DNA from: Thalassomonas sp. RHCl1
GTDB taxonomy: Bacteria > Pseudomonadota > Gammaproteobacteria > Enterobacterales > Alteromonadaceae
Assembly (NCBI RefSeq): GCF_947387555.1
Contig: NZ_CANDNZ010000015.1
Location: 62,001-126,000, forward strand
Reading direction: 5' to 3'
Length of the DNA stretch: 64,000 nucleotides
The notes beneath the pieces are model-generated. The model worked only from the letters and a program-made list of their open reading frames with translations, did no database searches and was not told where the DNA came from. Positions 3 to 44,534 of the stretch are shown piece after piece. How positions within the stretch are numbered: the stretch's first letter is position 1; each line of letters starts with the position of its first letter. Both the position numbers and the translations under genes were made by a program.

Positions 3-533
3 ATCGACGATGTTTTTGAAACCGTGGAGTCAGCCAGCGAAAGGCTGGGCAAGGTATTGTCCCAGTTGCGCAATAAACAGCTGGTACAGTCCCAGAGCAA
101 GGTGGTTGATATTGCCGCCCTTATCGATAAAGTGGTGCAGCAATGTAATGTCCGTGAGCCCAGGGTGCAGGTGGAACAAAGCCGGGAGTGCCTGATGCCC
201 CTGGACGGTGAAACGTTTTATTCTATTCTCAATCACCTGATCCAGAATGCACAGGAAGCGACAAAATCCGACGGTTGGGTTAAAGTATCATTAGAGGCTG
301 ATGATAAACAGGCTAAAATCACTATAAGTGATAACGGTACCGGCATGTCGGAAGAGTTTATCAATAAGCGCTTATTTAAGCCCTTTGATACCACCAAAGG
401 CAATGCCGGTATGGGCATCGGGGTGTTTGAAGCCCGGCAGTTTATACACAGCATTGCCGGTAAAATTGATGTGGCAAGTGAAGAAGGCCAGGGTACCGAG
501 TTTTGCCTGACCTTGCCGATTAAATCGTTATAA
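3..533 (+). CDS. prsK: PrsK-type sensor histidine kinase, C-terminal fragment (5' cut by window edge)
   Basis: The reading frame is open from base 3, so this is the end of a longer gene. What remains is the HATPase_c domain of a histidine kinase: an N-box (LIQNAQEA), a G1 box (ISDNGTGM) and a G2 region (FDTTKGNAGMGIGVFEARQF). The sensor and His-phosphoacceptor parts lie outside the window. It precedes a sigma-54 response regulator by 141 bases, and the rest of the locus is an XrtA/PEP-CTERM system, where the kinase/regulator pair PrsK/PrsR is the known partner. The PrsK name rests on this context; the kinase call itself is firm. Confidence 0.85.
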   Translation: MDDVFETVESASERLGKVLSQLRNKQLVQSQSKVVDIAALIDKVVQQCNVREPRVQVEQSRECLMPLDGETFYSILNHLIQNAQEATKSDGWVKVSLEADDKQAKITISDNGTGMSEEFINKRLFKPFDTTKGNAGMGIGVFEARQFIHSIAGKIDVASEEGQGTEFCLTLPIKSL

Positions 534-674: not shown

Positions 675-2021
675 ATGGAAAAATTGCTGATTATTGATGA
701 TGATAGCGGCGTTCAAAAGCAATTAAAGTGGAGTTTTTCTGATTATGATGTCATTTTGGCATCGGATCGTGAAAGCGCCATTGCGGCTGTCCGCCGCCAT
801 GAACCAAAAGTTATTACCCTGGATTTAGGCTTGCCGCCGGATGAAGCTAATGCTTCCGAGGGGTTGGCGGCCTTGCAGGAAATTCTGGCGATAGCTCCGC
901 ATACTAAGGTTATCGTGATCACGGGTAATGACGACAGGACCAATGCCTTAAAGGCGATTGCCGCCGGCGCCTATGATTTTTACCAGAAGCCGGTTGAACC
1001 CGAGGTGATCAATGTCATTGTCTCCCGCGCCTTTAGTGTTGCCGCGATAGAAGAAGAAAACCGCAAAATGCGTGCCGTCGCCGGTAGCGACATGGGGGTG
1101 ATAGGCAACAGCGCCAGCATAGACAGAATGCGTATGATGATCAAACGCATCGCCCCTACCAGTATTACTGCTTTGCTGCTGGGGGAAAGCGGCACGGGTA
1201 AGGAAGTGACCGCCAATGCCGTACATTTGGCCAGCGACCGCAAGAAAAAGCCTTTTATCGCCATTAACTGCGCCTCAATCCCGGAAACCCTGCTGGAAAG
1301 CGAGCTGTTTGGTTTTGAAAAAGGGGCCTTTACCGGCGCTCATAAAACCACTAAAGGGAAAATTGAATGTGCCGAGGGCGGCACTTTATTTTTAGATGAA
1401 ATCGGCGACATGCCCTATAACCTGCAGGCAAAACTACTACGCTTCTTGCAGGAAAAAAGCATCGAACGCTTGGGGGGACGCCAGGAAATTCCCGTGGATG
1501 TCCGGGTGATCTGTGCCACCAACCAGAACCTGGAGCAGATGGTGCAGGAAAAATCTTTCCGGGAAGATTTATTCTACCGGGTCAGTGAAATTACCTTGAA
1601 TATTCCGCCGCTTAGGGACCGGGAAGAAGATGTGCTGATCCTGGCGCAATACTTCCTGCAGCAATATGCTGCCGAATATAAGCGTAATGTTAAAGGCTTT
1701 TCCGAAGATGGCCTGAGTGCATTAAAAAATCATAAATGGCCGGGTAACATTCGCGAGTTGCAAAACAAGGTGAAAAGTTCGGTGATCATGAGCACAGGCA
1801 CCCAGGTGACCGCCATGGATCTCGGCTTCTTTGATCATGAAGACCAGGGTTATGAGCTGTCGCTGAATTTACGTGCCGTCAGGGAGCAGGCGGAAACCTT
1901 GGCAATCCAGAAAGCCTATGCCCTGTCTACCGGCAATATGTCGAAAACGGCGGAGTTGTTGGGTATTACCCGGCCGACGCTTTATTCTTTGGTGGAAAAG
2001 TATCAGTTGACCATCAACTAG
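675..2021 (+). CDS. prsR: PrsR-type sigma-54-dependent response regulator
   Basis: A 448-residue NtrC-family activator with three domains. The receiver domain (about 1-125) has acidic residues D8-D10, the phosphoacceptor candidate D50 (ITLDLGLP) and K105 (QKP). The AAA+ domain (about 143-370) has Walker A GESGTGKE at 170-177 and the sigma-54 contact motif GAFTGA at 217-222. A Fis-type helix-turn-helix closes the protein (SKTAELLGITRPTLYSL). Phosphorylation by the upstream kinase should let it remodel RpoN holoenzyme. In XrtA/PEP-CTERM genomes this is PrsR. Two sigma-54 promoters with a shared upstream palindrome-like motif lie before the PEP-CTERM genes at 42.2 and 43.5 kb and are its likely targets; that link is inference. 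Confidence 0.93.
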   Translation: MEKLLIIDDDSGVQKQLKWSFSDYDVILASDRESAIAAVRRHEPKVITLDLGLPPDEANASEGLAALQEILAIAPHTKVIVITGNDDRTNALKAIAAGAYDFYQKPVEPEVINVIVSRAFSVAAIEEENRKMRAVAGSDMGVIGNSASIDRMRMMIKRIAPTSITALLLGESGTGKEVTANAVHLASDRKKKPFIAINCASIPETLLESELFGFEKGAFTGAHKTTKGKIECAEGGTLFLDEIGDMPYNLQAKLLRFLQEKSIERLGGRQEIPVDVRVICATNQNLEQMVQEKSFREDLFYRVSEITLNIPPLRDREEDVLILAQYFLQQYAAEYKRNVKGFSEDGLSALKNHKWPGNIRELQNKVKSSVIMSTGTQVTAMDLGFFDHEDQGYELSLNLRAVREQAETLAIQKAYALSTGNMSKTAELLGITRPTLYSLVEKYQLTIN

Positions 2022-24436: not shown

Positions 24437-25201
24437 TTAAACTCTTATCAACTTACTGCGGATTTTTTCATAATTTTTATTGCCCAACAGACGCTTGGCC
24501 AGGGTAAGTACCTGCTGGACGATAATGGCCTTCCAATACATCATGCCGGTGCCCGAGAGCATATTGGCCAATACCTTGATACTGGTATTGCTGGTCATGG
24601 TGATACGGTTTATTGGTTGTTTGCGCTTGTTATGCCCCAATACTGAGGTGGCGATATAGGAGTAACCTAATTTCTGGTACAGGGGTAATACCTGTTTCAA
24701 ACCTCTGCCGCCGGGCAGGGCAACGGTATGCACCGGGTGTTGGGTGACGGACTCCACCTTTTGTTTGCTGATCTTCAGCTCCTGCTCCAGTGCTTCTGGC
24801 TCCAGATCCGACATATAGGTATGGGTCTGGCCATGGGCCTGTATGCTCATGCCTGCCTGGTGCATTTCCAGCAGCTGCTGGCCGGACATATAACCCGGGG
24901 TGTCTATCCAGTCGCTGGTGATATAAAACTCCGCCAGCATATTTCGCTTTTTCAGCTCGGGAAAAGCAAAGCTGTAGTTGGAGACATCACCGTCATCGAA
25001 GGTGATCACCACAGGCTTTTGATATTCGCCGCTCAGGGCCTGCTCCAGCGTCACCGCCTGGTAGTGGTTGGCCAGCAGGTAATCCAGTTGCTCAACAAAT
25101 GACTCTCGGGTCACGCTGTAGACGGCATCGAAGCAGCCGTCACATTCCGGGGTGGAATGTATGCCGTGATACATCAGGGAAGTAAAAGAAATCTTGCTCA
25201 T
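24437..25201 (-). CDS. Polysaccharide deacetylase (NodB domain)
   Basis: A 254-residue NodB-type CE4 protein with TSLMYHGIHS at the start, the metal/catalytic motif ITFDDGD near 67-73, and a second motif QAHGQTHTYM near 117-126. No signal peptide is visible, so it may act in the cytoplasm on a precursor or be exported by another route. It overlaps the exosortase gene by four bases and is of the kind that often accompanies exosortase-A loci. Likely removes N- or O-acetyl groups from sugar residues. Confidence 0.88.
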   Translation of the reverse strand: MSKISFTSLMYHGIHSTPECDGCFDAVYSVTRESFVEQLDYLLANHYQAVTLEQALSGEYQKPVVITFDDGDVSNYSFAFPELKKRNMLAEFYITSDWIDTPGYMSGQQLLEMHQAGMSIQAHGQTHTYMSDLEPEALEQELKISKQKVESVTQHPVHTVALPGGRGLKQVLPLYQKLGYSYIATSVLGHNKRKQPINRITMTSNTSIKVLANMLSGTGMMYWKAIIVQQVLTLAKRLLGNKNYEKIRSKLIRV

Positions 25202-26646
25202 TGTTTTTCTGTCATCAGTTGTTTGATAAAGCCCTGGTGGGGCGCCAGGTTAGTACAGGCGTTGTCGCATTCGGTGGCGACAAAATAGGCGCGGTTAATA
25301 AAATTCCCTTTAAGCAGGCTGGTAACCGAGGCCAGTTTGACTTTGGTTAGACTTGTGGTCAGCAGCTCGCCGCTCTGATACCAAAAGCTGTAATAATATT
25401 GCTTGCCATTTCCGGTGAGGATAAAGGTTTTCAGCGCGTGATCGGCGACCTTGTCGGTGATCTCTTCTTTAATGCGGTATTTTTTGCTCACCGGACGGTT
25501 TTCCGTATCGGTGATGTCGGCATTTTGATCCCGCATATCATATTCAAGCAGCATCAGGGTGTGGCGGCTGCCTTGCACAAGCTCCTGGCGGTATTGCTCC
25601 TGAGTTGGCGGGGTAAAGTTGTGCATAACTATTGGCTGATTGCCGGCCTGATTACTGAGTTGGTTGTCTTCCTGGCTGACCGGATTTATTGGCGCCTGCT
25701 GGTAAAGATAAGCGGGTATTGCCGCCGCCATGGCTAACACAGCGACAGTGGCCAGTGCCAGCCATTTCTGCCTTGCCTGCAGCGGCTGTGGCGTGATCGC
25801 CTGCTCTTTGTTTTCCTGGGTGGTGATATAAGGCAGCAGCAGGAAATAAAACAGCATAAAGACAGCAAACACTATCCAGCCCAGGCTGTTATGATCGGCG
25901 ATGATAGGGTGTGACATACCGTACTGGTGGGCATATAACACGATAACTTCTATCCGCACCCAGTTGGCGACAATCGCCAGTGCAAAGGCCAGGGTCAGGG
26001 AAATTACCTGGGAGCGGGTTTTAAACTGGGATAATTCGCTGTTGATCAGGGCGATGGATAAGGCCACCAGAATATAGCGGACTCCGCTGCAGCCTTCCGC
26101 CACCAAAAAGGTGCCGTTGGGAATGGCAACGGAATTGCCTTCAATATAGGTGGGAATGCCGATCAGCATACTGATGGTGGCGACGGCATTGGCGGCAATG
26201 GCCTGAAAAATAGGGGAAACAATCGACCATGACGGTACGGTAAAAAACAGCAGCAACAGGGGGATCAGAAACTTTTTCAGGTTGCGATAGCCGAATACCG
26301 CCCCGGTGGCGGCAATCATAAAGCAGGGCATTAAAAAACGTAATACCACTTCTATTTTGGCCAGCGAGGCCAGGGCATACGCCAGGGTAAGCCCTGCCAG
26401 CAGCAGCAGGAAGCCGATATTGCCCCTGGAGCCCTCGACGGCATAAGGTTTGGAGCCTATCAGAAAAAGGCTGACCAGCAGCAGCAATGAGCCGTGGGAA
26501 TAACTGTGGCTGTTCATCCAGGCATCCCAGTATTCGTGGATCTGCAGCGGATAAAAAACGCTAAATATGGCGATTAATGCCATAAACCATATCAATATGC
26601 TTAAATTTTTAGGTGCTAGATTCAAACCAGGGTTAACCTTATTCAT
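25198..26646 (-). CDS. xrtA: Exosortase A with C-terminal EpsI domain
   Basis: About 482 residues from the ATG at 26646; the upstream extension to 26700 is polar and unlike the family, which starts just before the first membrane helix. Many membrane helices are followed by the exosortase active-site set: Cys186 in LVAEGCSGVRY, Arg231 in ANWVRIEV and His252 in ADHNSLGW. The periplasmic C-terminal part (about 310-482) is the EpsI-type domain often fused to XrtA. The enzyme is predicted to cleave PEP-CTERM tails of exported proteins and pass them to an acceptor at the cell surface. Substrates in this window are the two proteins at 41390 and 42656. Confidence 0.95.
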   Translation of the reverse strand: MNKVNPGLNLAPKNLSILIWFMALIAIFSVFYPLQIHEYWDAWMNSHSYSHGSLLLLVSLFLIGSKPYAVEGSRGNIGFLLLLAGLTLAYALASLAKIEVVLRFLMPCFMIAATGAVFGYRNLKKFLIPLLLLFFTVPSWSIVSPIFQAIAANAVATISMLIGIPTYIEGNSVAIPNGTFLVAEGCSGVRYILVALSIALINSELSQFKTRSQVISLTLAFALAIVANWVRIEVIVLYAHQYGMSHPIIADHNSLGWIVFAVFMLFYFLLLPYITTQENKEQAITPQPLQARQKWLALATVAVLAMAAAIPAYLYQQAPINPVSQEDNQLSNQAGNQPIVMHNFTPPTQEQYRQELVQGSRHTLMLLEYDMRDQNADITDTENRPVSKKYRIKEEITDKVADHALKTFILTGNGKQYYYSFWYQSGELLTTSLTKVKLASVTSLLKGNFINRAYFVATECDNACTNLAPHQGFIKQLMTEKQ

Positions 26647-27004
26647 TATCAATTGCCGGGAATTCGGGTGAAGGGGTGAAAATAAACGGCAAATAGCCAA
26701 ACCTGGCCTTTGCTGAGACAGCGGACGTTTTTACTCGCGGGTTTATTGTTCATCTTGTTGGTATCGTCCTGCCAGCTGTCGGCCGAATCATCATAACCTC
26801 AGGAGAACTGCCCTTTATCCCGGGTGATGATGTCAATTCCTTCATTTATTGCTCTTTGTTATTCTTTTGTCAGCTGCTTTGTCAACAGCAAGAGCAAGTT
26901 AGTAACCACAATCTGGTCTAGTATAAAATGTTTTAATATTCAGAGCCAGAGATAGATGATTTTGGCGGATATTTTCATTTTTTAAGTCAAGATGCTGATA
27001 AGTA
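26647..27004. other. Intergenic gap upstream of xrtA
   Basis: About 358 bases between two co-directional genes. I see no sigma-54 site, terminator or small gene that I can support. The gap suggests that xrtA and the five-gene tail may have their own promoter. Confidence 0.4.
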
Positions 27005-37768: not shown

Positions 37769-38188
37769 GCATCATTCCTATATAGCAAATATCTTAGGGT
37801 CTTAATAATCAAAAAAAATTTCGTCCGCATGATAGCATATTATTTGTCATAATTACCCGCCGGACTTAAGTTAATTTTTCAAAAAAAATCACTGAACCAG
37901 GAGATTTTTTCGCGGCAAATTGCTGCTTTTTTTGTTTGCTTACCCCCGATGAAATTGTTTTCAGCGCCTGAACAGCCGCCTGTTTTTCTATTTCATTGTT
38001 TTGATTGTGAATCCAACCCAGATGGCATAGAATTTTGTGGTATATATCTGAGGTTTTCTGTAGTTTTTTTCTAACCGGCAAGAACTGCTGCAATAGGGGA
38101 GATTGCAGGCAAGAAAACCTCTTCTTTAATTGGCCAGGCATTTTGCTATATTGGCTATATATCTTTGCTTATAGATGGACTTGTTTAC
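37769..38188. promoter_or_regulatory. Divergent intergenic region between the assembly operon and prsT
   Basis: About 420 AT-rich bases between divergent transcription units. It must hold the assembly-operon promoter, which I cannot locate. It has no consensus sigma-54 site; a small frame at 37866-38141 was not accepted as a gene. Confidence 0.45.
38144..38152 (+). promoter_or_regulatory. Possible extended -10 promoter of prsT
   Basis: TGCTATATT matches an extended -10 (TGn-TATAAT) and would start transcription about 30 bases before the prsT ATG. There is no good -35. Confidence 0.35.
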
Positions 38189-40948
38189 ATGAAAAATGCT
38201 AATAAATTATTGTTTGCCACTAGTTTGATGCTAGCGGCATCTGCATGTACCCCACAAAAAACCGCCGAGGAACAAATAACCGAGGCCAAAGCTCATATCG
38301 CGCAACAGCAATTGTCCACTGCGAGTATCACTTTAAAAAATGTTCTTAAGGAAACGCCTCGCTCTGCCGAGGGGCGTTTTCTCCTGGCACAGGTTTACCT
38401 GAAAGTCGGTGAACTTGATAATGCCGAAAAAGAAATTAAAAAAGCGATTGAATATGGCTATGAAGCCGAAACGGCTAACTTATTCCTGGCGGAAGTTCTG
38501 TTAGAAAAAAATGATAACCAGGCGGTGATCGATTTACTGGAAAAACAAAAGTTTTCCACAGAATCGGCGCAAATTTTGAGCTTTATCTTTAAAGGTAAGG
38601 CGCACATCAATTTAAATCAGGTCGAGCTGGCCAAAGATGCCTTTGATACCGCTAATGACATTAATGTTGAGTCTTCCTATAGCCTCTACGGCTCTGCGAT
38701 AGTTGCTTCCATGGATGACAATTACCAGCTGGCGGCAGAGTTACTGGATAAGGCGCTGGCGCAACAGGATGATTTGGCAGAAGGCTGGATACTGAAAGCC
38801 CGGGTGGCGGAGCAAAATAAAGATTTTGCCACTGCCGTGAGTGCATATGAAAAATTCTTAGAGCTTAGGCCCAGGGCGCATAGCATCAAGTTATTGATGG
38901 CGAATGATTATCTTCAGTTAGAAAATGACGAGGCGGCAGAAAAGCTGGTTGATGACTTACTGAAATTAAATGAGGCCCACCCGACGGCCAACCTGTTAAA
39001 GGCAAAAATAGCCAACAGCAGAAAAGATTATGAGCTGGTGAAAAAACATGCCGAAACTACTTTAAACAGCACCCCGGAAGATCCCCTGGCGCTGTATTTA
39101 TCCGGGATCAGCAATTACTTTTTGAATAATTTCGAACAGGCCTATACCGCACTTTCCAAAATTGTCGAGCGCCTGCCTAAAACCCATGAAGCCCATAAGC
39201 TCTACATGTTGTCTATGTTGAAACTCGGTTATGTTGAGCAGTTAAACGAGCATGTCGGAGAATATGAAGGTTTTGACGATAAAGACAGTAATTTGCTTTC
39301 GGTGATCGGCTCCAGCCTGGCGGTCAGCGGTCAAACCCAAGATGCGGAAACGATCTTCGAAAGGGCGCTTGAGGTAAAACCTGATGATGTCAACGCCAAG
39401 AAAAAACTGGCTTTTGCCCGCCTGATGAACCGTGACCTGCAGGGGATCAGCGATCTGGAAGAAGTCAACGCCGTCAGTTCAGATGACAAAATGGTCAACC
39501 TGGTACTGGCATCTGCCTATCTCTACCAAAATAAAATTGAAGAAGCGAACAATATCGTTGAAAAGTGGCTGGAAAAAGAGCCGAAAGATATCGAGGCGCT
39601 ATTGTTAAAAGCACGGGTGTTAAGCGTTTCCGGCGAGCAGGATGCCAGTTTAACCGTGCTCAAACAGGCACAAGGTTATCAGCCTGACTCTACCAAGGTT
39701 TTATTAAAACTGGCGGAACATCATTTAAGGGCCGAGGAATATCAAACGGCAGAAAGCTTGCTGAAGCAGATATTGGCTGCTGCTCCGGATACCAAGCCTG
39801 CTTTGATTATGCTGAATCTGGCCAGTCAAAAACAGGAAAAACAACAGCAATTCTTTGATTATCTGACGGATATTAATAGCAAGCATAAAGAGGTGATTTG
39901 GCCTAAGCTGATGCTGGCGCAAAAATTCATCAATGACAGGGAGGCGGAGCAGGCATTAAAATATCTGGCACCGCTTGCTCAGGTGGAAAAATTACCCAAT
40001 GCCTACTATTCCATTGTGATGAACGGCTACTATCTGTTATCGGATAAAAGTAAACTTAACGATGTTGCCGGTACCTGGCAAGCAGTTAACCCCCAGGCGG
40101 TAGTCGCTTACCTTAAGCATATTGAATTTCTGGAAAAGCTCGGTGATATTCAGTCGGCTTTGCTTCAGGCGCGAAAAGCCCAGAAAAAAGTCACCAAAGA
40201 AAGTGATAATTTACGTTTAATGGTTTTGGAAACCCATTACCTGTTGCGTTTAGGCCGAAATAATAAAGTTGGTCCTTTGCTGACCAAGTTACAGGATAAA
40301 TTGCCGGACAATGCCCTGGTGAGTCAATTGGCAGGTCACCTGGCATTTAATAAAAAGCAATACGACGAAGCTATCAAGCATCTCGAGCAGTCTTTTGCTA
40401 AAGATAGCAATGTCAGAACAGCCCTGTTGCTGGCAAGCGCCTACCGCAGGAGTGACAATGAGGCCAAAGCAGTTGCCTTACTGGAGCAGGCACCTGAAAA
40501 AGTGAATCAAAATGTTGCTGTACAAAGTTTGTTATCTGAAATGTATACCAGAACAGATACAGCCAAAGCGATAGACTCTTATTTAAGACAGATTAAAGCC
40601 TCACCCAGAAATGTTGTTGCTTTAAATAATCTGGCCTGGCTGTTAACTGAGCAGAAACAATATGAGCAAGCCATTAGCTATGCCAGAAAAGCGCATGAGT
40701 TGATGCCTGATAATCCGCAAATACTGGACACTTTAGGGGTTGCTTTACTGAAGAACATCAAACGGGGGGAGGCCCTGGAAATATTGAAGAAAGCTTATTC
40801 GCTTTCTAAAGAAGCCACTATTAAAGTGCATTATGCTCAGGCGCTTGCCGCGAACGGTAAGAAAAGTGAAGCGAAACAATTGGTAGACGGACTGACAGAG
40901 CAGGAAAAATCAGAGCTCAAAGATGAGATAGAGCAGCTGGTTTTGTAA
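38189..40948 (+). CDS. prsT: PrsT: PEP-CTERM-system TPR-repeat lipoprotein
   Basis: About 919 residues from the ATG at 38189. This start gives a lipoprotein signal (MKNANKLLFATSLMLAAS, Cys20); a TTG at 38165 adds eight residues before it and is less likely. Almost the whole protein is tetratricopeptide repeats, with recurring patterns such as ARVAEQNKDFATAVSAYEKFLELRP, and late repeats (NVVALNNLAWLLTEQKQYEQAI). Long TPR lipoproteins named PrsT (TIGR02917) are typical of exosortase-A genomes and are thought to organise secretion or matrix assembly. It is monocistronic, facing away from the assembly operon. Confidence 0.92.
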   Translation: MKNANKLLFATSLMLAASACTPQKTAEEQITEAKAHIAQQQLSTASITLKNVLKETPRSAEGRFLLAQVYLKVGELDNAEKEIKKAIEYGYEAETANLFLAEVLLEKNDNQAVIDLLEKQKFSTESAQILSFIFKGKAHINLNQVELAKDAFDTANDINVESSYSLYGSAIVASMDDNYQLAAELLDKALAQQDDLAEGWILKARVAEQNKDFATAVSAYEKFLELRPRAHSIKLLMANDYLQLENDEAAEKLVDDLLKLNEAHPTANLLKAKIANSRKDYELVKKHAETTLNSTPEDPLALYLSGISNYFLNNFEQAYTALSKIVERLPKTHEAHKLYMLSMLKLGYVEQLNEHVGEYEGFDDKDSNLLSVIGSSLAVSGQTQDAETIFERALEVKPDDVNAKKKLAFARLMNRDLQGISDLEEVNAVSSDDKMVNLVLASAYLYQNKIEEANNIVEKWLEKEPKDIEALLLKARVLSVSGEQDASLTVLKQAQGYQPDSTKVLLKLAEHHLRAEEYQTAESLLKQILAAAPDTKPALIMLNLASQKQEKQQQFFDYLTDINSKHKEVIWPKLMLAQKFINDREAEQALKYLAPLAQVEKLPNAYYSIVMNGYYLLSDKSKLNDVAGTWQAVNPQAVVAYLKHIEFLEKLGDIQSALLQARKAQKKVTKESDNLRLMVLETHYLLRLGRNNKVGPLLTKLQDKLPDNALVSQLAGHLAFNKKQYDEAIKHLEQSFAKDSNVRTALLLASAYRRSDNEAKAVALLEQAPEKVNQNVAVQSLLSEMYTRTDTAKAIDSYLRQIKASPRNVVALNNLAWLLTEQKQYEQAISYARKAHELMPDNPQILDTLGVALLKNIKRGEALEILKKAYSLSKEATIKVHYAQALAANGKKSEAKQLVDGLTEQEKSELKDEIEQLVL

Positions 40949-41335: not shown

Positions 41336-41369
41336 AACAAAAAACCTCTGCCAATGCAGAGGTTTTTTT
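41336..41369 (-). terminator. Bidirectional terminator after PEP-CTERM gene 1
   Basis: An 11-bp stem, AAAACCTCTGC (41341-41351) with GCAGAGGTTTT (41356-41366), CAAT loop, and T-runs on both strands; 21 bases beyond the stop of the minus-strand gene. The CCTCTG/CAGAGG core recurs in the hairpin at 42602. Confidence 0.92.
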
Positions 41370-41389: not shown

Positions 41390-42244
41390 TTACTTCTTGG
41401 CTTTTCTCTTGGAAAAACCTAATCCTAATAAACCAAGGCCAAATAAGGCAATCATTGAAGGCTCAGGAACTTCTGTTAAACGGGCAAAAGTATAAACCGT
41501 GGTAGAGGTTTCTTCTTCAGTCCAAACGCGGTCCTGGTTGATAAACGTACTGCCGTCGGCATCAAAAGAAGTGAAGATCGTTAATGCGTAGTGCTTGCCG
41601 TCGATGTAAAAAGGTACGGCAAATGGCATAACGTCCGGTAATGGATCTGGGTTATCGATTGAATAGTCAAAGTAGTCATCACAACCTGTGATAAATTCGT
41701 GGCTCTCGCCGCCGGCAATGCCGTCTTGATCTACCGGAGAACACTGAGTAGGGTCAGTCTTGTTATAAGTTTCGGTGAATCCGATATCGAAATCACTGGT
41801 TGCGGTTGAAGTGAAGTCATCAATAACGAATGAGTTACCGAAGTCAGCAGCGATACCGCCTGAGTGATCGCTTGAAAAATCAATAGAGCCGGCAATATCA
41901 GCTTGCGTTAACCAGTCAAAACTAGCACTGATACGGAAGTTGTTGTGGGTCAAGGCAGAAATCATATAGTTGGTATCAAGGGCATCGATATCTACAGAGA
42001 AACCTTCAAGAATTAAAGAGCTGTATGCACCGTTACCGCCCCAGCGAACACCGTCATGGATCACTGTGCCGTCGTTTGTTTGATCAGCATGTGCACTACC
42101 ATCAAGGTTAGTGAATTCACCGGCATCTTTATAAACAAAGCCACCGGTAGAAGTTGCTGTCATAAAAGTTGCATTAGCGCTGAAAGAAAATGCACTAGCA
42201 ATCGCTAAAGCGGTTAAATTTTTAACCCATCCAGTATTTTTCAT
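41390..42244 (-). CDS. THxN-family PEP-CTERM protein 1
   Basis: A 284-residue exosortase substrate. A Sec signal peptide ends near FSANA (about residue 25). The THNN motif at 99-102 (ALTHNNFRIS) marks the THxN group. Two cysteines (PTQCSPV and ITGCDDY) probably form a disulfide. The C-terminus is a full PEP-CTERM signal from residue 259: VPEPS, a hydrophobic helix (MIALFGLGLLGLGF) and the basic end SKRKAKK. XrtA, encoded at 25198-26646, should cleave near VPEPS. A sigma-54 promoter and three copies of an activator-like motif lie upstream. Very similar to the next gene upstream (42656-43510), so a duplication. Role in matrix or floc formation is inferred from the class. Confidence 0.95.
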   Translation of the reverse strand: MKNTGWVKNLTALAIASAFSFSANATFMTATSTGGFVYKDAGEFTNLDGSAHADQTNDGTVIHDGVRWGGNGAYSSLILEGFSVDIDALDTNYMISALTHNNFRISASFDWLTQADIAGSIDFSSDHSGGIAADFGNSFVIDDFTSTATSDFDIGFTETYNKTDPTQCSPVDQDGIAGGESHEFITGCDDYFDYSIDNPDPLPDVMPFAVPFYIDGKHYALTIFTSFDADGSTFINQDRVWTEEETSTTVYTFARLTEVPEPSMIALFGLGLLGLGFSKRKAKK

Positions 42245-42323: not shown

Positions 42324-42340
42324 AAGCAGTTAGTGTGCCA
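42324..42340 (-). promoter_or_regulatory. Sigma-54 (-24/-12) promoter of PEP-CTERM gene 1
   Basis: Reading on the minus strand: TGGCAC, five bases, CTGCTT. It matches TGGCAY-N5-TTGCW at all but one fixed position, with the essential GG and GC exactly ten bases apart. The start site would be near 42314, about 70 bases before the ATG. Confidence 0.85.
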
Positions 42341-42414
42341 ATGTTTAAAATTTCTTTTAAAACAGTCTGTTAGCTATTGATTTGTCCTGCAAAGGCGGAT
42401 TGGCTGGAATTTGA

Positions 42415-42478
42415 TGTAAAGAAATCTGACATGTGTATGTAAAGTAATTTGACGTGGATGTGTAAATAATATTGACAC
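42415..42478 (-). promoter_or_regulatory. Three tandem enhancer-like motifs (TGTAAA-N6-TGACRY), 23-bp period
   Basis: Copies begin at 42415, 42438 and 42461, exactly 23 bases apart: TGTAAAgaaatcTGACAT, TGTAAAgtaattTGACGT and TGTAAAtaatatTGACAC. The core TGTMA-N7-TKACR is an imperfect inverted repeat, as expected for a dimeric Fis-type helix-turn-helix. Centres lie about 110, 133 and 156 bases upstream of the predicted start site. PrsR is the likely ligand (inference). The rest of the 42245-42655 gap is otherwise empty apart from the 42602 hairpin. Confidence 0.75.
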
Positions 42479-42655: not shown

Positions 42656-43510
42656 TTATTGCTCCGATTTTCTTTTAGAGAGACTAAAACCTAATAAACC
42701 TAAAGCGAGTATCGCCAGGGTGGATGGCTCTGGAATTTCACTTAAGCGGGCAAAGGTATAAAGGGTGGTTGATTTCTCTTCTTCTGTCCAGATCCGTCCG
42801 GGAGGTAATACCGTACTGCCATCAGCATCAAAAGAACTGAATATGGTCAAAGCATAATGGCTGCCGTCAATATAGAAGGGAATGGCGAACGGCAGGGTAT
42901 CAGGGAGCGGGGCCGGGTTGTCGATCGAATAGTCGAAGTAGTCATCACAGTTTGTGACAAAAGTGTGAGTGGCGCCACCGGCAACACCGTCTTCATCTAC
43001 CGGTGCGCAACCTGCGACAGTTGAGGTGTTAAAGGTTTCGGTGAAGCCGATATCAAAGTCACTCATGGCATTGGCAGTGAAGGCATCGGCTACCGTTGAA
43101 CTACCAAAGGCTGCTGCAATACCGCCGGTATTGGTGCTGGTGAAAGCGATCATACCCAAAATATCGGCATTGGTAAGCCAGGGAAAGGCGGCACTGATGC
43201 GGAAGTTATTATGGGTTAATGCCGAAAGCATATAGTTAGTATCAAGGGCATCAATATCCGGAGCAAAGTCTTCCAGCACCAGTGAACTGTATGCACCGTC
43301 ACCGCCCCAGCGAACCCCTGCATGTTTTACCGTTCCATCATTGGTTTGATCCGCATGGAGGGTACCGTCAAGGTTAATAAACTCGCCGGCATCCTTCATA
43401 ACAAAGCCGCCGTTGGATGTTGCCGTCATGAAAGTTGCGTTAGCGCCAAAAGAAAGTGCACTCGTAAGTGCTATCGCAGTCATGTTTTTCATCAATCCGA
43501 TATTTTTCAT
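42656..43510 (-). CDS. THxN-family PEP-CTERM protein 2
   Basis: A 284-residue paralogue of the 41390 gene, the same length and alignable throughout: signal peptide (cleavage near FGANA), THNN in SALTHNNFRIS, paired cysteines (VAGCAPV, VTNCDDY), and a PEP-CTERM tail IPEPS plus hydrophobic helix TLAILALGLLGFSL and basic end SKRKSEQ. Differences concentrate in the middle region (about 110-170). It has its own sigma-54 promoter with one upstream motif copy and its own terminator, so the two paralogues are separate transcription units under shared-looking control. Confidence 0.95.
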   Translation of the reverse strand: MKNIGLMKNMTAIALTSALSFGANATFMTATSNGGFVMKDAGEFINLDGTLHADQTNDGTVKHAGVRWGGDGAYSSLVLEDFAPDIDALDTNYMLSALTHNNFRISAAFPWLTNADILGMIAFTSTNTGGIAAAFGSSTVADAFTANAMSDFDIGFTETFNTSTVAGCAPVDEDGVAGGATHTFVTNCDDYFDYSIDNPAPLPDTLPFAIPFYIDGSHYALTIFSSFDADGSTVLPPGRIWTEEEKSTTLYTFARLSEIPEPSTLAILALGLLGFSLSKRKSEQ

Positions 43511-43579: not shown

Positions 43580-43595
43580 AGCATAAGACATGCCA
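43580..43595 (-). promoter_or_regulatory. Sigma-54 (-24/-12) promoter of PEP-CTERM gene 2
   Basis: On the minus strand: TGGCAT, five bases, ATGCT. One mismatch to TGGCAY-N5-TTGCW, with correct GG-N10-GC spacing. Start site near 43569, about 58 bases before the ATG. Confidence 0.82.
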
Positions 43596-43659
43596 TCAAA
43601 TTAAAGTCAATAGAAAACAAAGGATTGGCGAAAAGTGTAATCTTTTGGCTGAAAGCTTA

Positions 43660-43677
43660 TGTAAAATATGTTGACAT
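43660..43677 (-). promoter_or_regulatory. Single enhancer-like motif upstream of PEP-CTERM gene 2
   Basis: TGTAAAatatgtTGACAT fits the same TGTAAA-N6-TGACRY pattern as the triple array upstream of PEP-CTERM gene 1. Its distance to the -24 element is 65 bases against 75 for the nearest copy at gene 1, a difference of about one helical turn. It abuts the stop codon of the upstream gene. Confidence 0.7.
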
Positions 43678-44534
43678 CAGGCGTCCACGACACGTTTGGC
43701 GATATGAAACATGATGCGTGGTATCAGCCCTGAGTTGCCAAAAGGACGCCAGGTTTTTACCAGTTTATTACGGTAGGCATCAAAGTGCAGCCCATGGGGG
43801 GCGGCTAATATTTCTCCCCGGTTAAGTAGTATTTTTAAAGCATAAGTTTCGGCTATTCCTGCACATAGGCTTACCGCCATCGGGGTTGAGGGGCCGCGTT
43901 TTTCTTTGAAATTAACCCGGCTGTCATCCACCAGGTATTGGCGTTGCAGCATGGCGGGTGAAAGACCTATCAGGAACTGAATAAGCTGGTCGTGCTCTGA
44001 TTTCCCTGCAAATTTGAAGTATTGTTCATAAGTCATTTGTCCCGGCATAAAGCAAAGTAAGGCACAACCCATGCCTAAGGGGGCTGCCGTGATCACCGGG
44101 ATCTGCTTTTCATAGCATTTTTGAAAAACGGTTTTACGGGCTTCGAGGGCAAAAAAGTCCAAAGCATCTACATATAAATCAACACCTTCGAGAAACTCAT
44201 CGACATTATGTGCGAAAATACCTTCCGGAAAAGATTTTATGTTTGCTTCCGGGTTGATATCTTTTGCCATCTCTTCCATCACATCGACTTTTTGTCTGCC
44301 AAGTGTCGACATAAATGCCCCGGATTGACGGTTAAAATTGTGGACTTCAAAGTCGTCAAAATCTGAGATGTTAAAATTTTCGACACCCAGTCTTGCCAGG
44401 GTGAGTAAGTGGATACCACCAACGCCGCCGGCACCTGCTATGGCCACCCGCCGGGTTCTTAATGTTTCCTGTTCGGCTTCGGTAACCCAGCCGATGTTTC
44501 TTGAAAAAGCTTTTTTGTAATCAAACATGCTCAA
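43677..44534 (-). CDS. ThiF/E1-like adenylyltransferase-family protein
   Basis: A 285-residue ThiF-type protein: the nucleotide-binding glycine loop VAIAGAGGVGG at 30-40, then ISDFDDFEVHNFNRQSG (57-72) with the conserved Asp, Asn, Arg and Gln of E1-like enzymes, and DLYVDALDFFALEARK. The zinc-binding CxxC pairs of MoeB/ThiF are not visible, and no catalytic cysteine can be assigned with confidence. Such proteins adenylate a carboxylate, typically a C-terminus. It sits between the UDP-sugar genes and the PEP-CTERM genes. What it activates is unknown. Confidence 0.85.
   Translation of the reverse strand: MSMFDYKKAFSRNIGWVTEAEQETLRTRRVAIAGAGGVGGIHLLTLARLGVENFNISDFDDFEVHNFNRQSGAFMSTLGRQKVDVMEEMAKDINPEANIKSFPEGIFAHNVDEFLEGVDLYVDALDFFALEARKTVFQKCYEKQIPVITAAPLGMGCALLCFMPGQMTYEQYFKFAGKSEHDQLIQFLIGLSPAMLQRQYLVDDSRVNFKEKRGPSTPMAVSLCAGIAETYALKILLNRGEILAAPHGLHFDAYRNKLVKTWRPFGNSGLIPRIMFHIAKRVVDA

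What the first reader, a model, noticed from the sequence alone, without database searches (positions are those of the whole stretch)
42324..42478. Sigma-54 promoter with a three-copy, 23-bp-phased enhancer array before a PEP-CTERM gene
Seen: a -24/-12 element with one mismatch, and three copies of TGTAAA-N6-TGACRY at an exact 23-bp period, 75-155 bases upstream of the -24 element. Known: NtrC-family activators bind such inverted repeats upstream of RpoN promoters, and PrsR, encoded at 675-2021, has GAFTGA and a Fis helix-turn-helix. Inference: these are PrsR binding sites giving cooperative, probably steep, activation of the exosortase substrate.
Basis: partly seen in the sequence, partly recalled or inferred. 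Interest (0 to 1): 0.8.

Follow-up and report, generated by a model that had tools for sequence, protein, structure and literature searches.

The report
Helically phased PrsR/sigma-54 enhancer array
The repeats look like real copies of a known binding site for the regulator PrsR, which controls genes for cell-surface (PEP-CTERM) proteins, and across many bacteria such sites lie whole turns of the DNA helix from the promoter, often with what looks like a DNA-bending-protein site in between.

Summary
Confirmed: three TGTAAA-N6-TGACRY boxes at an exact 23-bp period lie upstream of a -24/-12 element before a PEP-CTERM gene; a fourth box with its own -24/-12 precedes the paralogous neighbour. The motif is published: "motif 1" of Haft et al. 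2006 (17 nt ending TTTACA, "sometimes repeated", ~63 nt from a sigma-54 site, assigned to PrsR). What I add: (1) box-to-promoter distance is helically quantised. In 80 PrsR-positive genomes, 238 box-promoter pairs cluster near 41, 52, 63, 74, 85 and 95 nt (period about 11.05 bp); 202 lie within 2 bp of a rung. (2) An IHF-like site sits 30-34 (or, inverted, 18-21) nt upstream of the -24 in 45 of 100 promoters versus 1.3 in shuffles; the window's two promoters match 7/9 and 8/9. (3) Box orientation is nearly fixed. (4) Multi-copy arrays are rare outside this genus. Best reading: PrsR on face-aligned boxes, DNA bent by IHF, activating sigma-54 polymerase. PrsR binding and cooperativity are inferred.

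The parts
42415..42432 (-). PrsR box, proximal copy (gene strand ATGTCAGATTTCTTTACA); 74 nt from the -24 T
42438..42455 (-). PrsR box, middle copy (97 nt from the -24 T)
42461..42478 (-). PrsR box, distal copy (120 nt from the -24 T)
42360..42372 (-). IHF-like site TAACAGACTGTTT, 7 of 9 consensus positions, at the position enriched across the class (starts 32 nt upstream of the -24 T)
   Evidence: identity inferred
42325..42340 (-). sigma-54 -24/-12 element TGGCACACTAACTGCT
41390..42244 (-). THxN-family PEP-CTERM protein gene downstream of the array
43660..43677 (-). single PrsR box of the neighbouring promoter (64 nt from its -24 T)
43615..43627 (-). IHF-like site CAATCCTTTGTTT (8 of 9) of the neighbouring promoter
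   Evidence: identity inferred
43580..43595 (-). sigma-54 element TGGCATGTCTTATGCT of the neighbouring promoter
42656..43510 (-). paralogous THxN PEP-CTERM gene (NF038125, 87.0 bits, cut-off 85)
675..2021 (+). PrsR, sigma-54 enhancer-binding response regulator (TIGR02915)
24..533 (+). C-terminal part of a PrsK-like histidine kinase (TIGR02916 profile 518-679, 196.7 bits, below the full-length cut-off 300; the rest would lie outside the window)
38165..40948 (+). PrsT TPR protein (TIGR02917, 533.2 bits, cut-off 312.2)
25198..26700 (-). exosortase (TIGR02602 over cut-off; best match XrtA, 181.1 bits, below its cut-off 208)

Best explanation
The array is the enhancer of a PrsK/PrsR-controlled sigma-54 promoter. 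Phosphorylated PrsR binds the directional 17-bp boxes; a bend at a fixed IHF-like site between enhancer and promoter brings PrsR's GAFTGA AAA+ ring onto sigma-54 polymerase waiting at -24/-12. Contact works only if the box lies on the right face of the helix, so natural boxes sit on rungs about 11 bp apart. The three copies at 23 bp (about two turns) lie at 74 and 97 nt, on those rungs, and at 120 nt, within 2 bp of the extrapolated ladder, and probably give more, or more cooperative, PrsR occupancy than the usual single box. Shown by sequence: boxes, promoter, IHF-like site, rung spacing, orientation, conservation, association with PrsR genomes. Inferred: PrsR binding, IHF identity, bending, cooperativity, steep output.
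For:: of 13 exact genomic matches 12 lie before ORFs with PEP-CTERM-like tails (10 promoters; 8 of these genes are in the TIGR02595 list, 2 judged by eye); three boxes kept in three congeners while much of the spacer diverged; 61 of 123 PEP-CTERM upstream regions of three genomes of the genus hold a box at score >=12 (78 sites); shuffles 0.4 sites; opposite strand 0 sites; 52 of 61 box-bearing regions have a sigma-54 score >=16 downstream, against 17% of far-upstream control windows; 238 box-promoter pairs in 72 of 80 PrsR-positive genomes versus 3 for the reversed-pattern controls; period 11.05-11.07 bp (bootstrap by genome 10.89-11.26); 202 of 238 within 2 bp of a rung; 0 of 2000 smoothed-null draws reach the observed periodicity; inverted box 8 matches, against 136. 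IHF-like site in a fixed place in 45 of 100 versus mean 1.3 (max 5) in 200 shuffles. Published: pepA needs RpoN1 in Aquincola, with a predicted enhancer upstream of its mapped promoter (PMC9850573 passages).
Against: No binding or expression data. 7 of 80 genomes scored PrsR-negative still have a match (3 of 66 among the near-complete ones); their gaps are 51, 53, 63, 39, 48, 38 and 41, several on or near rungs. In Aquincola prsK or prsK-prsR on a plasmid did not restore an epsB2 insertion mutant, which epsB2 did restore, so that paper gives no genetic support for PrsR. Extra boxes are rare: none scoring >=9 of 10 lies 17-75 bp upstream of the box in 100 class promoters, so an array is not needed for PrsR action. 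55 of 100 promoters have no IHF-like site at >=8 of 9. The periodicity score alone separates 11.05 from 10.5 bp weakly (R 0.736 versus 0.693), though both interval estimates exclude 10.5. The matrix was trained on own-genome sites, and orthologues are not independent. A sigma-54 score >=14 is not selective (57 of 61, but also 71% of control windows). rpoN and ihf genes of this genome were not searched.
Confidence: 0.85

Rival explanations
1. Same promoter class, but the three copies add no function: tandem duplication of a box leaves redundant copies, only one of which works.
For: Most PrsR promoters have one box (47 of 61). G001 carries a second box at two promoters (L166, L171) where the apparent G000 and G003 counterparts have one.
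Against: At this promoter all four species of the genus that are held keep three boxes although the spacer diverged and the inner letters of the boxes differ, so the copies look maintained and not freshly duplicated. Periods are 21-23 bp.
Confidence: 0.25
2. The boxes are bound by a different NtrC-type activator than PrsR, or by several related ones.
For: PrsR-like boxes occur before efflux genes in Bacteroidota, in one case beside a PrsR-related regulator below the TIGR02915 cut-off; 7 of 80 PrsR-negative genomes have a match.
Against: Box+promoter pairs track PrsR: 65 of 80 PrsR-positive versus 7 of 80 negative genomes for gaps of 35-65 nt, agreeing with the phylogenetic profile of Haft 2006.
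Confidence: 0.1
3. The conserved element 32 or 19-20 nt upstream of the -24 is intrinsic curvature or a polymerase (alpha-CTD) contact and not an IHF site.
For: The stretch is AT-rich in general (position profile) and 55 of 100 promoters lack a site at >=8 of 9.
Against: The match is to a gapped consensus in either orientation, never both at >=8 in one promoter, with fixed positions; the D. vulgaris orp2 sigma-54 promoter, with a functional IHF site at -43 and the activator site at -88, has a similar layout (PMC3897727 passages).
Confidence: 0.25

Closest known systems
PEP-CTERM cis-regulatory site, motif 1 + motif 2 (Haft et al. 2006, PMC1569441; section 7 read; other passages)
   Same: 17-nt box ending TTTACA, spacer 62.8 (SD 10.6) nt to a sigma-54 element, before PEP-CTERM genes in PrsR/PrsK/PrsT genomes; repetition already mentioned (R. 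rubrum)
   Different: Section 7 gives mean, SD and range of the spacer and no helical quantisation; 'IHF' and 'integration host factor' do not occur in the text, and 'helical' only for a protein; no three-copy 23-bp array is described in the passages I saw
Vibrio qrr enhancers under LuxO (Brunwasser-Meirom et al. 2016, PMC4740811; section 10 read)
   Same: Sigma-54 enhancers whose activator-promoter distances cluster about 11 bp apart; tandem activator sites
   Different: 61 enhancers of one gene family in one genus with loops of ~80-120 bp; here a regulon sampled in 72 genomes, mostly single boxes, 39-96 nt within the searched range
D. vulgaris orp2 promoter (PMC3897727, passages)
   Same: Activator site (-88), IHF site (-43), sigma-54 element
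   Different: Different activator (DVU2106) and genes
NtrC enhancer of glnA (recalled, no call)
   Same: Imperfect 17-bp dyads bound by an NtrC-family response regulator upstream of -24/-12
   Different: Two sites about three turns apart (recalled) against about two turns here; the PrsR box is strongly asymmetric

Membership tests
PEP-CTERM/PrsR cis-regulatory site (Haft 2006) | 17-nt motif ending TTTACA on the gene strand | tested here: met
PEP-CTERM/PrsR cis-regulatory site (Haft 2006) | -24 GG / -12 GC element 32-92 nt downstream of the most 3' box | tested here: met
   74 nt (array) and 64 nt (neighbour)
PEP-CTERM/PrsR cis-regulatory site (Haft 2006) | Gene encodes a PEP-CTERM protein; genome has PrsR, PrsK, PrsT | tested here: met
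   of PrsK only a C-terminal part is in the window, below the full-length cut-off
NtrC-family enhancer-binding protein (PrsR) | Receiver, sigma-54 activation domain with GAFTGA, Fis-type HTH | tested here: met
Sigma-54-dependent promoter | Transcription requires rpoN | not testable with these tools
   shown elsewhere for pepA of Aquincola
PrsR-bound enhancer | Direct, phosphorylation-dependent PrsR binding | not testable with these tools
   needs footprinting
IHF-assisted sigma-54 promoter | IHF consensus between activator site and promoter, bound by IHF | tested here: inconclusive
   window sites 7 and 8 of 9 at the class-enriched position; binding not tested

The most novel reading that the evidence does not exclude
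The PrsR regulon is a natural ruler for enhancer action: hundreds of sigma-54 promoters across a bacterial class keep the activator box at whole helical turns (about 11.05 bp and not 10.5) upstream of a fixed IHF bend, so evolution has recorded the in vivo helical repeat and the geometry of the activator-polymerase contact; the three-box array occupies several rungs at once to strengthen or sharpen activation.
Probability: 0.6. Interest if true: 0.65.

Novelty: new member of a known kind. Interest (0 to 1): 0.5.

Why it matters
The array itself is a richer example of a promoter class predicted in 2006. The wider pattern is more useful: a regulon with a near-invariant directional box, a bend site in a fixed place and about 11-bp rungs lets one read loop geometry and in vivo helical repeat from genomes (compare lac-loop fits of 11.08 and 10.95 for one study's strains and 11.60 for another, PMC1762422 passages). 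It also gives a sharp rule (box, rung, IHF-like site) for finding PrsR targets, including any that are not PEP-CTERM genes.

Tried and rejected
Tandem arrays as a general PrsR feature: rejected. A scan for tandem boxes (period 16-46) hit 5 of 80 PrsR-positive genomes, 3 of them congeners; 100 class promoters show no preferred second-box offset (at most 3 of 100 at any offset for >=7 of 10); the genome-contig scan for TTTACA + box + promoter gave 52 stretches, but in only 4 of the 23 that my crude expression calls PEP-CTERM is the upstream copy a full GTC box, so most are half-sites, probably chance among very many promoters. That expression misses some: several of the 29 others have PEP-CTERM-like tails to the eye (for example L229, L239).

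Order-wide and family-wide tandem scans with stricter patterns found few hits: 6 of 295 and 2 of 59 genomes. The units in G204, G225, G255 and G309 were not followed.

Weak second boxes in the genus: only a small excess at -22/-23, consistent with the known tandem promoters.

IHF-like site frequency falling with loop length (30 of 56 at gaps up to 65 versus 15 of 44 longer): not significant (Fisher p = 0.069); not claimed.

PEP-CTERM detection in the 100 class promoters was crude: 40 of 100 in a first pass, 50 of 100 in a second, with 37 showing a closed ORF but no match and 13 open. I do not claim what share of class targets is PEP-CTERM.

Choice of positions for the IHF-like count (30-34 and 18-21 nt): first seen in the genus, widened after looking at the same 100 promoters, so partly post hoc; the shuffles use the same windows. 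At the laxer >=7 of 9 the count is 67 of 100 versus 9.6 in shuffles and 16 of 99 at control positions.

Rows dropped or not used: 2 of 66 G000 PEP-CTERM hits without a proper ORF; 28 of 43 G003 and 32 of 50 G001 genes were fetched, and 1 of the 28 dropped for want of an ATG; G002 genes were not fetched. Searches used 80 of the 106 PrsR-positive genomes. One search used 80 of its 263 negatives; 'negative' means no TIGR02915 match at E <= 1e-150 with at most 4 candidates scored per genome, and most negatives were identified by their handle being absent from the list of positives. The 100 class promoters were picked by hand from the 238, spread over genomes and rungs.

Full report
OBSERVATION. 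The three boxes, their exact 23-bp period and the -24/-12 element are in the sequence as described. The one-mismatch scan of the window gives four matches, all exact; 100 shuffles give at most three. On the gene strand the box reads RYGTCA-N6-TTTACA.

WHAT IS PUBLISHED. Haft et al. 2006 (PMC1569441; section 7 read whole, other passages) described a 17-nt motif ending TTTACA, "sometimes repeated", followed after 62.8 nt (SD 10.6, 32-92) by a sigma-54 motif, before 99 of 167 proteobacterial PEP-CTERM genes, and assigned it to PrsR by phylogenetic profile. In Aquincola, pepA transcription depends on RpoN1 from a mapped -24/-12, and a predicted enhancer sequence was noted upstream (PMC9850573, passages). 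So the class of element is known; I saw no direct test of PrsR binding in these papers. Literature searches were (open-licence PubMed Central only, so subscription papers are not covered); the two closest (PEP-CTERM with PrsK/PrsR, and PEP-CTERM with integration host factor) listed 8 and 3 papers, of which I opened only PMC1569441 and PMC9850573.

ENRICHMENT IN THE OWN GENOME. The exact pattern occurs 13 times in 7.56 Mb against 4 for the reversed pattern. Twelve of the 13 (10 promoters) precede ORFs with PEP-CTERM-like tails, each with a GG-N10-GC element 40-81 nt after the (proximal) box; the remaining one (L002) precedes no such ORF. Eight of the 10 genes are among the 66 TIGR02595 hits; those at L005 and L013 I judged by eye.

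CONSERVATION. Orthologues of the array gene exist in three congeners (85-96% identity). Two keep three boxes at 23/23; the third keeps three boxes at 23/21, two of them off the strict pattern. In the alignment boxes, -24/-12 and the start region stand out from a diverged spacer. Elsewhere in the genus tandem pairs at 22-23 bp occur before other PEP-CTERM genes (successive-box spacings 22 once and 23 eight times, orthologues counted separately, then 44 and 135-218). Multi-copy arrays are otherwise rare.

HELICAL QUANTISATION. In the genus, 52 of 61 box-bearing regions have a sigma-54 score >=16 (17% of control windows), and at >=14 (57 of 61; not selective, 71% of control windows) the gaps are almost only 40-42, 50-52, 61-64 and 73-74 nt, with single cases at 81 and 97. 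A class-wide test used 80 of 106 PrsR-positive genomes. The pattern box + 35-65 nt + TGGC-N8-TGC gave 136 matches (reversed control 2) and with 66-96 nt 102 matches (control 1). The best period is 11.05-11.07 bp; bootstrap by genome 10.89-11.26; a regression of gap on turn number (gaps under 92) gives 10.94 (10.69-11.17); 202 of 238 lie within 2 bp of a rung (about 45% expected if uniform); with one promoter per genome the median period is 11.15; outside the main rung it is 11.05-11.10. None of 2000 draws from a smoothed version of the same distribution reached the observed periodicity. The periodicity score itself is flat between 10.5 (0.693) and 11.05 (0.736), so the preference for 11 over 10.5 rests on the bootstrap and regression intervals. 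Fits of lac loops in E. coli gave 11.08 and 10.95 for one study's strains and 11.60 for another (PMC1762422 passages). The nearest precedent I found is the about 11-bp clustering of 61 Vibrio qrr enhancers (PMC4740811 section 10).

ORIENTATION AND PrsR LINK. In PEP-CTERM upstream regions the box matrix finds 78 sites on the gene strand and none on the other at score >=12; at >=8 it is 85 and 15, against 7.4 in shuffles (the matrix is asymmetric and was trained on own-genome sites). Class-wide the inverted box gave 8 matches (reversed control 1) against 136 for an equally wide gap range, with scattered gaps. In 80 of the 263 PrsR-negative genomes the shorter-gap pattern hit 7 genomes (3 of 66 near-complete ones), against 65 of 80 PrsR-positive ones; some of those seven gaps (51, 53, 63) are on rungs, so a few may be real sites in incomplete genomes or sites of a related activator.

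IHF-LIKE SITE. In 56 genus promoters, 23 have YAAN4TTGATW at >=8 of 9 in the spacer (about 5 expected from shuffles), 20 of them 31-32 nt upstream of the -24 T; 15 have WATCAAN4TTR at >=8 (about 5 expected), 9 of them at 19-20 (consensus recalled, a near form WATCARxxxxTTR is printed in PMC3897727). A further set of 100 class promoters peaks at the same two positions: 45 of 100 have a site scoring >=8 of 9 at 30-34 or 18-21 nt, against mean 1.3 and maximum 5 in 200 shuffles, and 5 of 99 at control positions; none has both. The place is tied to the promoter, not to the box. I suggest that both orientations cover the same stretch, because IHF contacts extend to one side of the consensus (recalled, inference). 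The array promoter scores 7 and its neighbour 8 exactly 32 nt upstream.

MECHANISM. Established family knowledge: NtrC-type AAA+ activators with GAFTGA remodel sigma-54 polymerase after looping, often helped by IHF. The sequence evidence adds that contact seems possible only from one face of the helix. The 23-bp array keeps its copies at 74 and 97 nt, on rungs, and at 120 nt, within 2 bp of the ladder extrapolated beyond the searched range. Why this promoter has three copies is inferred: more or cooperative PrsR occupancy. In this genus the tandem promoters often have the proximal box off the favoured 63-nt rung (74, 50, 73; one at 63), so extra boxes may compensate for a less favourable position; the numbers are too small to test.

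LOCUS. A C-terminal part of PrsK, PrsR, an exosortase and PrsT are in the same window, so the predicted circuit of Haft 2006 is present.

Noticed in passing
L196, L200, L201, L202, L216, L220, L230, L235 (Bacteroidota records): 8 of the 12 Bacteroidota hits have two PrsR-like boxes 21-23 bp apart before a near-consensus sigma-54 element. Of 6 downstream ORFs scanned, 3 are TolC-type (L196, L216, L220), 2 MacB/FtsX permeases (L230, L235) and 1 a radical SAM protein (L201). L220 also carries a divergent NtrC-type response regulator (37% identical to the window's PrsR, below the TIGR02915 cut-off) and a kinase. Possibly a separate sigma-54 efflux regulon using a PrsR-like box.
   Followed up: partly
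43660-43677: The fourth PrsR box overlaps by one base the stop codon of the upstream gene 43677-44534(-).
   Followed up: no
L005 and L013 (own genome C5:314306 and C24:2917): Box-bearing promoters before short proteins with PEP-CTERM-like tails that are not among the 66 TIGR02595 hits; the box could help find missed exosortase substrates.
   Followed up: no
G204, G225, G255, G309 (L073-L076): A conserved 57-bp unit with two box-like GTCA-N6-TTTACA copies 41 bp apart in four genomes of one other genus of the order; its relation to PrsR was not examined.
   Followed up: no
41339-41368: Terminator-like hairpin downstream of the array gene on the minus strand (13 pairs, then a T-rich tail).
   Followed up: no
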